Of a stretch of 64,000 nt of DNA, positions 1 through 39,018 are shown piece by piece. Positions within the stretch are counted from its first letter, which is position 1; every line of letters begins with the position of its first letter. Source of the DNA: Bdellovibrio sp. ArHS. Its GTDB lineage: Bacteria; Bdellovibrionota; Bdellovibrionia; Bdellovibrionales; Bdellovibrionaceae. The notes beneath the pieces are model-generated. The model searched no databases. It had not been told where the DNA came from and was given only the letters and a program-made list of their open reading frames with translations. The stretch is from contig NZ_JTEV01000020.1 of the NCBI RefSeq assembly GCF_000786105.1, forward strand, positions 1 to 64,000. Direction: 5' to 3'. Position numbers and translations under genes: made by a program.

Positions 1-1
1 T

Positions 2-43
2 AACGGGAATAACGGGAATAACGGGAATAACGGGAATAACGGA
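2..43 (+). repeat. 9-bp in-frame tandem repeat (Asn-Gly-Asn)
   Basis: Four perfect copies of aacgggaat run from base 2 to 37, followed by a decaying copy. The array continues off the left edge, so its true length is unknown. It is in frame with the downstream coding region and encodes repeated Asn-Gly-Asn. A perfect 9-bp array inside a gene can gain or lose units without a frameshift. Confidence 0.85.
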
Positions 44-2092
44 AACAACGGCCATAAAGGGAACCACGGTACAACCACTTACGGTCCAACTGTAACCACG
101 ACGGCAGGCCCTGACACTACGGTCACAACAACAGCCGGTCCTGATACAACTACTTATGGCCCAGACACCACGGTCACCACGACATCGGGTGAACCGACAG
201 TGACGACGACGGCAGGTGATGATACCACCTCCACAACGACGGCGGGCGACGACACAAGTTCGACGACCTCTTCAGCGTCAACAACAGGAACGACCGGTTT
301 TGATGAAGAAGAAGAAAACGAGTTGAAGGCCAAGTTGAAACCTCTTTTCCACTTGAGTTTTGACTATGGTTCTTACATCGTGAACTTGACTCCGCACTTC
401 AGAGATGTGCAGCCGAAATCAATTGTAAAATACGACTATCGCCCTAGCTCAGACACTTTGATCTATGGAGATTACACTGACGGTTTCCAAAAAACAGTCT
501 ATGGCTCTATTGAGGTCGGTATTGGTGCGCAAGTACGATTCTGGTTCGACAATGCTTCGGGACTTCGTCAGCACTTCTGGGGTTACGTCGGCGTATTACC
601 TATTGTCGGTAAGCAGACTGAGTCTGTTCGCTATGTCAGCACGCTCGACCGCGCTTATGCAATGGGTGGACGTTGGCAGGTGCCTAAAGAGGCGTCAGAT
701 CTTGACGCTTGGGATACGGGCGACAGTATTACGTACCTAGGAAGCGGGGGACTTATCTTCTCTGCAGGTGCAGGATTCGGCCCTGTTGGCGCAGGAGTTG
801 CGAAACTTGCGAGTGGTACTTGGGAAACCTATGTTGAGAAAGTGGACTCGGAAAAAGTTTACGTGAAGATCACTCGCGGTAAATTGAACAGCTTCTCGAT
901 GTTTACAAATGTGGCAATCCTGACTTTGAGTGTGAATGACTTCAAGTATTCTGACGACGGATTCTCATTCCTATTCGATATGACGACAGAAACAGGTCGA
1001 AAAGCTTACGAAGACGTGATTCGCGGAAACGTGTTGGCGTCAGAAAACTTTGCGACGAATCCGCCGGCGAACTTGGTCGAACGTGCCCCTGTTCTTAAAG
1101 TGGAGACATTCAGAACAGTTTCCACAGGACGTGTGGCAAGCAAATCACTTTCTATTCCAATTATCTGGAATAAAACATACAGTGAAGGACGCGTGAACTC
1201 ATTCACGACTTCAGACTTGCACATTGATCGTAACACCGCTCAAGTTCACTACGGTATCTACTCAGATTCAGAAGATTCTCGTTTCTGGTTCAAACACAAA
1301 GAAACAGACTTCATGTTCTATGGTGCTAAATATGCCGTGGAAAACTGGGATACAAAAGAGCGCATGGAAAGCATGTTCGGTACATACTCTTATGCCTTCC
1401 GTCATGAAAGTTCTAATGGAGCTCGCTTGCGCAAAGGGATTTACGACCTTGTCAAAAAGACAGGTTTAAATATCCTGATGGTCGGTGTTCCTGATCGTGA
1501 TCTTGGATATAGTGGTGTTGAATTCAACGTCAACTTCAGTGAAGAGAACACAATGAGATTGATGGCTGCCGCACAAAGTATGACTCAAGATCAATTCATC
1601 GATTTATCGACGGATCAGATCTATGACTACTTCCGCACAAACGGCGACCCGTATGACTACTGCATGATTGATGCAAGCGGTCCGGGTTCTTGTGTAACTC
1701 GTACTAGCAAACGCACTGCCGGCGCAGCCAGCAAGATGTATTTCGCCTTGAAAGCTATGTCGAAATATATGAACTCGGATGCAAAAGCTTTTGCCGCCGC
1801 TTACGGTAAGTTCGGTGAAGGCATGGCGGAAAACTTGTTCACATTCCGTACAGCGATGAAGTTGGCGGGTTCGGGCGCTACCATTGACTACTTGGTTGAA
1901 GGTACGCACACCAGCATGTACTTCCGTGAATGGGTTGTGGACGATAAAGGACGTTGGGTTCCAGCGATGGCATCGCCTAAATACAAAGGCCTGCCATTCA
2001 GCCCAGCCTCTCGTCACTCACGAGTGCGTGGCATGATCATTGGAAATTCTGATGCGGCAAAACTGCCACATATGACTCCGGTGACATTCTAA
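2..2092 (+). CDS. Repeat-stalked putative surface protein, 5' truncated by window edge
   Basis: The reading frame is open from base 2, so the GTG at base 200 is not the real start and the N-terminus lies outside the window. Visible order: an Asn-Gly-Asn repeat tract, a Thr-rich stalk with repeated TTTAGPDTT and TTTAGDDTT units to about base 295, an acidic stretch (DEEEENELK), then about 580 residues of globular sequence rich in aromatic residues with alternating polar and hydrophobic segments. I do not recognise the globular part. The Thr/Gly/Pro stalk resembles linkers of cell-surface or secreted proteins, so an envelope or exported role is inferred. Two cysteines near the C-terminus (DYCMIDASGPGSC) could form a disulfide. 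The gene ends in TAA followed by a strong terminator. Confidence 0.8.
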   Translation, partial: NGNNGNNGNNGNNGNNGHKGNHGTTTYGPTVTTTAGPDTTVTTTAGPDTTTYGPDTTVTTTSGEPTVTTTAGDDTTSTTTAGDDTSSTTSSASTTGTTGFDEEEENELKAKLKPLFHLSFDYGSYIVNLTPHFRDVQPKSIVKYDYRPSSDTLIYGDYTDGFQKTVYGSIEVGIGAQVRFWFDNASGLRQHFWGYVGVLPIVGKQTESVRYVSTLDRAYAMGGRWQVPKEASDLDAWDTGDSITYLGSGGLIFSAGAGFGPVGAGVAKLASGTWETYVEKVDSEKVYVKITRGKLNSFSMFTNVAILTLSVNDFKYSDDGFSFLFDMTTETGRKAYEDVIRGNVLASENFATNPPANLVERAPVLKVETFRTVSTGRVASKSLSIPIIWNKTYSEGRVNSFTTSDLHIDRNTAQVHYGIYSDSEDSRFWFKHKETDFMFYGAKYAVENWDTKERMESMFGTYSYAFRHESSNGARLRKGIYDLVKKTGLNILMVGVPDRDLGYSGVEFNVNFSEENTMRLMAAAQSMTQDQFIDLSTDQIYDYFRTNGDPYDYCMIDASGPGSCVTRTSKRTAGAASKMYFALKAMSKYMNSDAKAFAAAYGKFGEGMAENLFTFRTAMKLAGSGATIDYLVEGTHTSMYFREWVVDDKGRWVPAMASPKYKGLPFSPASRHSRVRGMIIGNSDAAKLPHMTPVTF

Positions 2093-2979: not shown

Positions 2980-3071
2980 GCCCCGGTGGCGAAATTGGTA
3001 GACGCACAGGACTTAAAATCCTGGGCTTCCTTTACAGGGGCGTGCCGGTTCAATTCCGGCCCGGGGCACCA
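2980..3071 (+). tRNA. tRNA-Leu(UAA)
   Basis: The acceptor stem is GCCCCGG paired with CCGGGGC, then discriminator A and an encoded CCA at 3069-3071. The anticodon loop cttaaaa gives anticodon UAA, reading UUA. A long variable arm (gggcttcctttacaggggc), typical of class II leucine tRNAs, is present. The T arm is GCCGG-ttcaatt-CCGGC. The last six bases also form the start of the left arm of an inverted repeat. Confidence 0.97.
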
Positions 3072-3211
3072 CTTCCTCTTCTTTTGCTTCAGACAGTCCT
3101 CGCTCGGACTACTTCACTTAATTAAGTTAGTTTTTTGGCTCGATGAATTTGTTTTGCCTTCGTGGTGTCTACTGAGGCCTGCGGAACTCGCAAAAGAAGA
3201 GGAAGTGGTGC
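3066..3211 (+). repeat. Inverted-repeat element, copy 1 (tRNA-linked)
   Basis: Perfect 22-bp inverted arms lie at 3066-3087 and 3190-3211 around a 102-base centre. The left arm starts inside the tRNA 3' end (GCACCA). The centre carries GACAGTCCTCGC at 3092-3103 and CTGCGGAACTCGC at 3179-3191. Both motifs recur, in the same order, in an element at 38891-39018 whose arms are unrelated in sequence. A decayed copy of the right half lies at 4585-4659. So the internal motifs are conserved while the arms differ between copies but pair within each copy. No open reading frame here looks real. Confidence 0.8.
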
Positions 3212-3230
3212 TTGGTGTTTTGGACTTGCT

Positions 3231-3255
3231 GGCCCCTTTGGGGCTCGCTTTTTAG
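3231..3255 (+). terminator. Weak terminator downstream of tRNA-Leu
   Basis: A short hairpin, ggcccc-ttt-ggggct, is followed by cgctttttag. It could end transcription from the tRNA, but the stem is only six pairs with one wobble and the T-run is short. Confidence 0.4.
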
Positions 3256-38890: not shown

Positions 38891-39018
38891 CTTTGCCGCC
38901 AGCTCTGTGCTGACCTCTATACTCATTGGCTCGGACAGTCCTCGCGGACGTGCCCTTTGGGCTACTGCTGCGGAACTCGCCACTGAGTACAGAGGTCAGC
39001 ACAGAGCTGGCGGCAAAG
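38891..39018 (+). repeat. Inverted-repeat element, copy 2
   Basis: Arms of 35 bases at 38891-38925 and 38984-39018 pair with one mismatch around a 58-base centre. The centre holds GACAGTCCTCGC (38934-38945) and CTGCGGAACTCGC (38968-38980), identical to the two motifs in copy 1 at 3066-3211. The preceding ctactg is also shared. The arms bear no resemblance to the arms of copy 1. It begins 13 bases after the thiolase stop and sits between two genes that are normally cotranscribed. Confidence 0.85.

What the first reader, a model, noticed from the sequence alone, without database searches (positions are those of the whole stretch)
3066..3211. Inverted-repeat element family with conserved core motifs and non-conserved, self-paired arms
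Elements at 3066-3211 and 38891-39018 share GACAGTCCTCGC and CTGCGGAACTCGC in the same order. Their outer arms (22 and 35 bp) are unrelated between copies yet pair almost perfectly within each copy. Ordinary transposon ends are conserved between copies; here the core is conserved and the arms are copied from local sequence. In copy 1 the left arm even includes the tRNA 3' end. This suggests a process that inserts a core and makes an inverted copy of flanking DNA, or strong selection for a long hairpin. I know no named family with this design.
Basis: seen in the sequence. Interest (0 to 1): 0.72.

Follow-up and report, generated by a model that had tools for sequence, protein, structure and literature searches.

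The report
Hairpin repeats with host-copied arms
Scattered through every examined Bdellovibrio genome, and found in distant bacteria too, is a small DNA element whose core is fixed but whose long hairpin arms consist of the neighbouring gene's end and an inverted copy of it, so each copy carries a different hairpin; this looks like an undescribed way of building a dispersed element.

Summary
The core occurs in all 24 genomes searched of the window's genus (2-16 copies; reversed-pattern control 0-1). All 127 distinct copies extracted have self-paired arms, mostly unrelated between sites. The same core occurs in Coriobacteria, Omnitrophota, Planctomycetes, Myxococcales and a Clostridia genome, and, with its two strands permuted, in Beta/Gammaproteobacteria and Nitrospirota, but in only 6 of 223 sampled relatives outside the genus, so it probably spreads horizontally.

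The left arm is native sequence: the end of the upstream gene (stop codon, last codons) or of a tRNA. The right arm is its inverted copy. Inverted similarity extends beyond the perfect arms to about 100 nt, often into the upstream coding sequence, and fades there, while the inner 20-45 bp stay paired. The core lies 18-63 nt after many stop codons and 20-31 nt after five different tRNA genes, in sense orientation.

Between species, arms change on both sides together, often in bursts, while core and flanks stay put. Best reading: a non-autonomous element that landed near transcript ends with an inverted copy of upstream DNA, the hairpin then being kept by selection or arm-to-arm template switching. 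The enzyme is unknown.

The parts
2980..3071 (+). tRNA-Leu (taa), the upstream gene whose 3' end forms the start of the left arm of copy 1
   Evidence: ARAGORN; Rfam tRNA
3066..3087 (+). copy 1, left arm GCACCACTTCCTCTTCTTTTGC (native sequence: tRNA end plus trailer)
   Evidence: orthologous sites
3092..3103 (+). copy 1, core strand 1 GACAGTCCTCGC
3104..3178 (+). copy 1, internal loop (72-78 nt class, T/G-rich on this strand)
3179..3191 (+). copy 1, core strand 2 CTGCGGAACTCGC (last GC overlaps the right arm)
3190..3211 (+). copy 1, right arm GCAAAAGAAGAGGAAGTGGTGC, inverted copy of the left arm including the tRNA end
   Evidence: pairing 22/22
3230..3254 (+). terminator-like hairpin plus T run (TGGCCCCTTTGGGGCTCGCTTTTT) beyond copy 1; a similar hairpin lies there in G013, G015 and G017
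   Evidence: seen in sequence
38891..38930 (+). copy 2, left arm, about 13 nt after the stop codon of a thiolase-like gene
38934..38945 (+). copy 2, core strand 1 GACAGTCCTCGC
38946..38967 (+). copy 2, short loop with small inner hairpin (23-30 nt class)
38968..38980 (+). copy 2, core strand 2 CTGCGGAACTCGC
38979..39018 (+). copy 2, right arm, inverted copy of the left arm
   Evidence: orthologous sites

Best explanation
The two loci belong to a dispersed, non-autonomous, horizontally spread hairpin element. Its fixed part is a two-strand internal-loop core (strand 1 TCRGACAGTCCTCGC, strand 2 CTGCGGAACTY); everything paired around the core is free in sequence. Inferred origin of a copy: the core becomes joined to DNA 18-60 nt downstream of a gene or tRNA 3' end, in sense orientation. 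The growing strand then folds back through the core and copies 50-100 nt of the upstream DNA, so the core is bracketed by native sequence and its inverted copy. Afterwards the inner 20-45 bp are kept complementary, by selection for the hairpin and/or hairpin-templated (template-switch) arm-to-arm correction, while the distal part of the copy decays. Shown here: the family, its orientation and site preference, the native origin of the left arm, the decaying inverted copy, and paired turnover of the arms. Inferred: mobility, fold-back copying as the insertion step, and single-strand folding of the bottom strand as the recognised form. Unknown: the enzyme.
For: Family: core 1 in 24/24 genus genomes and 127 copies with paired arms. 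Left arm native: at three tRNA-Leu genes the arm includes or abuts the tRNA CCA end. In about 20 copies the alignable arm reaches into the upstream CDS with its stop codon, and the right flank carries its inverted copy; L317 aligns 40 nt of CDS with 30 paired; L349, L317 and L367 keep species-specific versions of the last codons in both arms. Two copies outside the genus genome set, L160 (a Bdellovibrio MAG) and L073 (a Clostridia MAG), show the same. Fading copy: copies above the 99th percentile of mismatched pairs number 25/127 at 45-75 nt, 28 at 60-90, 17 at 75-105, 7 at 90-120, then chance. Site without the element: G001 L429 has an intact lipoprotein start, MKHLVGAS...LTGCG, where G004/G007/G008 have the element and their left arm begins with the related ATGAAGCG..TTGG. 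Polarity: stop-to-core distances cluster at 34-63 nt on the left only; five tRNA sites (Leu taa/gag/caa, Arg cct/tct) all lie upstream at 20-31 nt in sense. Turnover: in G001/G004/G007 core identity is 1.00, left flank about .95, loop about .9, arms either .92 or more or .58-.77 for most pairs; 356 paired against 78 one-sided pairwise changes, half of the paired ones transversions or flips. Horizontal spread: 6 of 223 relatives outside the genus sample but distant phyla positive.
Against: No fresh insertion with a sister-strain empty site was found. The one element-free site (G001) may be a loss, since the outgroup G008 carries the element. The bursts of arm replacement are not explained by simple fold-back copying of the left flank, because outer flanks stay the same. 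No mobilising enzyme was identified: no Y1 transposase lies next to elements and three carrier genomes have none; reverse transcriptase is found in 4 of 24. In Coriobacteria no inverted similarity shows beyond about 40 nt.
Confidence: 0.62

Rival explanations
1. A structured RNA (or 3'-end RNA element) under selection: the hairpin works in 3' untranslated regions, arms have no sequence requirement and evolve by compensatory mutation; copies spread by ordinary recombination.
For: Sense-orientated position after stop codons and tRNAs; conserved junction strands with all helices variable, including optional extra helices inserted in the core; paired changes far outnumber one-sided ones.
Against: In the arms A.C mismatches exceed G.T on the sense strand (59 against 19 at 8-31 bp from the core), the reverse of what a folded sense RNA should tolerate; half of paired changes are transversions or flips, not G.U-mediated transitions; it does not predict decaying inverted copies of the upstream CDS; no Rfam match. 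Copy 2 lies between two co-directional genes with only a short gap in several species lacking it.
Confidence: 0.2
2. The core inserts alone and the arms arise later and independently by replication template switching, as in known template-switch hairpins.
For: Template switching is known to make and maintain perfect stems in one step (PMC8794818); bursts of multi-base paired change fit it.
Against: All 127 copies have arms, so arm formation would have to be near-obligatory; copying runs from the gene side wherever the direction can be read. Otherwise this shades into the best explanation.
Confidence: 0.2
3. The core inserts into the loop of hairpins that already exist at gene ends, such as intrinsic terminators, so the arms are old terminator stems.
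For: Position after gene ends; arms unique per site.
Against: Arms of 20-60 bp are far longer than terminator stems; at tRNA-Leu(taa) a separate terminator-like hairpin lies beyond the element in G000, G013, G015 and G017; arms include tRNA and coding bases not expected to be part of a terminator stem; no T run directly after the right arm in the copies inspected.
Confidence: 0.05
4. A REP-like repeat mobilised by a resident Y1 (TnpA-REP) transposase.
For: Dispersed, after stop codons, sometimes in convergent pairs; Y1 proteins present in 21/24 genus genomes.
Against: No core motif within 1.5 kb of 30 Y1 genes; 3 carrier genomes lack Y1; REP stems are conserved in sequence within a genome, these are not.
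Confidence: 0.08

Closest known systems
REP/BIME elements with TnpA-REP (RAYT) transposases (PMC2817692, PMC3733652, PMC8266576)
   Same: short dispersed intergenic palindromes, often after stop codons, sometimes in inverted pairs, found in many bacteria
   Different: REP stems are conserved in sequence and carry a GTAG or CGTC-type tag; here the arms are not conserved in Bdellovibrio, a central two-strand core is, and no RAYT is linked
Template-switch-made hairpins (Monttinen and Loytynoja 2022, PMC8794818) and quasipalindrome correction
   Same: perfect stems from an inverted copy of adjacent DNA; multi-base paired changes
   Different: those are single mutations without an inserted, conserved, repeated core
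Mobile hairpin elements of mitochondria: repetitive hairpin-forming elements of sponges (PMC2800124); double-hairpin elements of fungi (known to me by name)
   Same: small mobile hairpins in intergenic DNA without genes
   Different: no report known to me of arms copied from the insertion site; only listings of these papers were read
Integron attC sites
   Same: folded single strand (bottom strand in attC; bottom strand suggested here), located after genes, with variable stem
   Different: attC keeps conserved recombinase boxes at its outer end; here the outer arms are unconserved and the conserved part is central (comparison from general knowledge)

Membership tests
REP/RAYT | stem sequence conserved among copies of a genome | tested here: not met
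   arms unrelated between sites; 15-mer search of about 660 kb of genus sequence found almost no shared arm words outside orthologous sites
REP/RAYT | conserved GTAG/CGTC-type tag at the foot of the hairpin | tested here: inconclusive
   no conserved columns outside the core in the alignment of 28 copies with 20-24 nt of each arm; the feet of longer arms were not aligned separately
REP/RAYT | linked or co-occurring TnpA-REP gene | tested here: not met
   no motif near 30 Y1 genes; G002, G011, G014 lack Y1 but carry elements
MITE / IS-derived element | terminal inverted repeats conserved between copies | tested here: not met
   outer arms differ between sites
MITE / IS-derived element | target-site duplication | not testable with these tools
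   no fresh insertion with a near-identical empty site was found
Integron attC | conserved outer recombinase boxes and an integrase | tested here: not met
   no conserved bases in the outer arms; integrase not searched
Known RNA family (Rfam 15) | covariance-model match | tested here: not met
   only the tRNA matched at gathering thresholds; weak sub-threshold hits only
Intrinsic terminator | T run directly after the stem | tested here: inconclusive
   absent in the copies read by eye; no systematic scan was run
Template-switch hairpin | one arm is an inverted copy of adjacent native sequence | tested here: met
Template-switch hairpin | no inserted repeated core | tested here: not met
   core conserved across genus and phyla
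Retroelement using a resident reverse transcriptase | RT gene in carriers | tested here: not met
   RVT_1 in 4 of 24 carrier genomes

The most novel reading that the evidence does not exclude
A new class of mobile hairpin element that carries only a folded core and makes its stems from the host: on insertion near a transcript end it copies 50-100 nt of the upstream sequence in inverted form, and its arms later turn over in paired bursts.
Probability: 0.5. Interest if true: 0.88.

Novelty: categorically new. Interest (0 to 1): 0.78.

Why it matters
If right, there is a class of dispersed bacterial element whose inverted repeats are not inherited with the element but templated from the landing site, and whose arms then evolve in concert. 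That would link mobile elements with replication template switching, offer a natural system for measuring arm-to-arm correction in hairpins, and explain why such repeats could escape repeat finders: most of each copy is unique. The core spans several phyla, so the responsible enzyme should be findable.

Tried and rejected
Rfam at gathering and E-value thresholds: nothing but the tRNA. Paper searches for the motifs in the held open-access library: none relevant. Y1/RAYT linkage in the genus: none; a tblastn of poorly extracted Y1 frames against the named contigs found nothing but was a weak test. Autonomous versions with a gene between the cores: none in held loci. Source of new arm sequence elsewhere in the genome: one replaced arm (G003) had no second copy, and shared arm words were almost absent elsewhere in about 660 kb. 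Hairpin-ribozyme substrate resemblance of GACAGUCC, recalled from memory: dropped, because the partner strand does not fit. Reverse-transcriptase-made arm (cDNA of the upstream transcript): considered because the right arm is antisense to the gene, but RT genes are missing from most carriers.

Full report
WHAT WAS CHECKED. Both elements are present as described. Copy 1 (3066-3211) has 22/22 paired arms that begin with the last six bases of tRNA-Leu(taa). Copy 2 (38891-39018) has arms of about 40 nt with a few mismatches and lies between a thiolase-like and an enoyl-CoA-hydratase-like gene (my reading of the translated ends). Both carry GACAGTCCTCGC and CTGCGGAACTCGC in that order.

A FAMILY, NOT A COINCIDENCE. 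Core 1 occurs 5 times in the own genome and 2-16 times in each of 24 genomes of the genus, with 0-1 reversed-pattern controls. I extracted 127 distinct copies; every one has self-paired arms. Loops fall into classes of 23-30, 38-46 and 72-78 nt, with two near-loopless copies. Arms of non-orthologous copies share almost nothing: 15-mer words of arms hardly occur elsewhere in about 660 kb of genus sequence.

RANGE. The 15-mer TCRGACAGTCCTCGC is found in named genomes of several phyla. Three Adlercreutzia genomes (Coriobacteria) have 15-32 copies of core 1 with the same order of parts. Omnitrophota, a Deltaproteobacterium, a Myxococcales genome, a Planctomycete and a Clostridia genome have single examples with site-specific arms. 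Beta- and Gammaproteobacteria and Nitrospirota have a permuted form, CTGCGGAACTCG - variable hairpin - TCRGACAGTCCTCGC, so the two core strands are kept while the helix that closes them is swapped. This argues that a folded two-strand motif is what is recognised. In a phylum-wide sample, 18 of 18 genomes of the genus but only 6 of 223 others carry the exact motif. Patchy presence together with distant carriers suggests horizontal spread. Many of the viral-contig hits and some genome hits of the 15-mer lack the second core and are probably chance.

WHERE IT SITS. The core often follows the 3' end of a gene in sense orientation: stop-to-core distances cluster at 34-63 nt on the left side and not on the right. 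Five tRNA genes (Leu taa, gag, caa; Arg cct, tct) have it 20-31 nt downstream, always in sense. Inverted pairs of elements occur in G001, G003 and Adlercreutzia, as expected if each of two convergent genes has one. Some ortholog groups lie between divergent genes, so the rule is not absolute. 59 of 84 copies in complete genomes are co-directional with replication if contigs start at the origin, which I did not verify.

ARMS COME FROM THE HOST. At tRNA-Leu(taa) the left arm contains the tRNA end, which must be native. In about 20 copies the alignable arm reaches into the upstream coding sequence, including its stop codon. In the group L317/L349/L367 the gene ends ...GGC CAC GGC TAG...GGC CAC GGT TAG or ...GGA CAT GGT TAA, and the right arm carries the inverted copy of these bases, with species-specific changes present in both arms apart from one base in L317. 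Beyond the perfect part, the right flank is a decayed inverted copy of the gene end: L317 aligns 40 coding nt, 30 paired; L373, L031, L359, L309 and others are similar. Across all 127 copies, inverted similarity exceeds the 99th percentile of mismatched pairs in 127, 60, 25, 28, 17 and 7 copies in windows at 10-30, 30-50, 45-75, 60-90, 75-105 and 90-120 nt, and is near chance level beyond. Orthologous copies are not independent, so the counts by group are smaller (44, 19, 8, 6, 4, 1 of 44 groups). Two loci from other assemblies, L160 (a Bdellovibrio MAG) and L073 (a Clostridia MAG), show the same overlap with an upstream reading frame.

AN ELEMENT-FREE SITE. G001 lacks the element where G004, G007 and G008 have it. 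There the downstream gene starts ATGAAACACTTGGTTGGTGCATCC... (a lipoprotein signal). In the carriers the left arm begins with the related ATGAAGCG..TTGG and the right arm is its inverted copy. Because G008 is the more distant genome of the four, G001 may have lost the element by recombination, so this is support, not proof.

WHAT HAPPENS AFTERWARDS. Orthologous copies keep core and position while arms change. In the trio G001/G004/G007 the core is identical, the left flank about 95% and loops about 90% identical, but arm identity is 0.92 or more at some sites and 0.58-0.77 at most others, random being 0.56. For example L313/L019 share outer and inner arm parts but differ at 8 of 18 middle positions, on both sides (read). 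Alignable orthologous arms show 356 paired changes against 78 one-sided ones, of which 173 are transitions and 183 transversions or flips (pairwise counts, not independent events). This does not look like slow drift through G.U pairs. Elements can also die: G000's L001 has decayed arms, G007 lost the core at the copy-2 site but kept a hairpin, and G021 kept only the left arm at tRNA-Leu. In G005 an older right half lies beyond the present element at tRNA-Leu, which suggests repeated events at one site.

WHICH STRAND. In arms, A.C mismatches exceed G.T on the sense strand (59 against 19 at 8-31 bp from the core), and Coriobacteria show the same bias (62 against 5, largely one conserved position). 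Loops are T/G-rich on the sense strand, hence A/C-rich on the other. Both point to the bottom strand as the one that folds, as DNA or as an antisense RNA. This is an inference.

MECHANISM. The simplest account is insertion of a folded core near a transcript end, followed by fold-back copying of the upstream strand, and later maintenance of the inner stem by selection and/or template-switch correction, a process already argued to create and maintain stems (PMC8794818). The insertion step, the enzyme and the cause of the arm bursts are not shown. Resident Y1 transposases and reverse transcriptases do not track the element.

NOVELTY. No matching RNA family or paper was found, but the paper library holds open-licence articles only. 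REP elements are the nearest known kind; the host-templated, non-conserved arms around a conserved core set this apart. Hence 'categorically new', with the caution that mobility is inferred.

Noticed in passing
L252, L260, L261 (thiolase-hydratase intergene of G023, G012, G013): A different hairpin family occupies the same intergene: conserved pieces like TCGACTGCGTTGTCGGG, CTCCGACGTG, ACGCCTGCGCTGCGG, CCCTCCGCCTTGCGCTCGG with variable paired stretches between them. It may be a second family of the same design.
   Followed up: no
L434 (G004) and L426 (G001): Longer forms in which core 1 is split as GGACAG^TCCTCGC by about 65 bp: TGT-hairpin-ATCCTTCGGACTTCGCG-hairpin, with unrelated hairpin sequences but the same junction strands.
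   Followed up: partly
L286 and L297 (G011), L171 (viral contig): About 42.6 kb separates the intact tRNA-Leu(taa) from a second partial tRNA end followed by the element, which looks like a prophage or other integrative element inserted at the tRNA 3' end; the viral contig L171 carries the same junction.
   Followed up: partly
L281, L282 (G006, G003 tRNA-Leu) and L021 (G006): Assembly gaps (runs of N) fall exactly inside the hairpins, so copy counts in draft genomes are probably low.
   Followed up: no
L326 (G004), L332 (G007): Loops shrunk to 5-7 nt while cores and arms remain, a natural near-minimal form.
   Followed up: no
tRNA sites of the genus: Of five tRNA genes with the element, three are leucine (taa, gag, caa) and two arginine; whether this is preference or a prophage hot-spot effect is open.
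   Followed up: partly
window 1-60: The window opens with a short tandem repeat (AACGGGAAT units).
   Followed up: no
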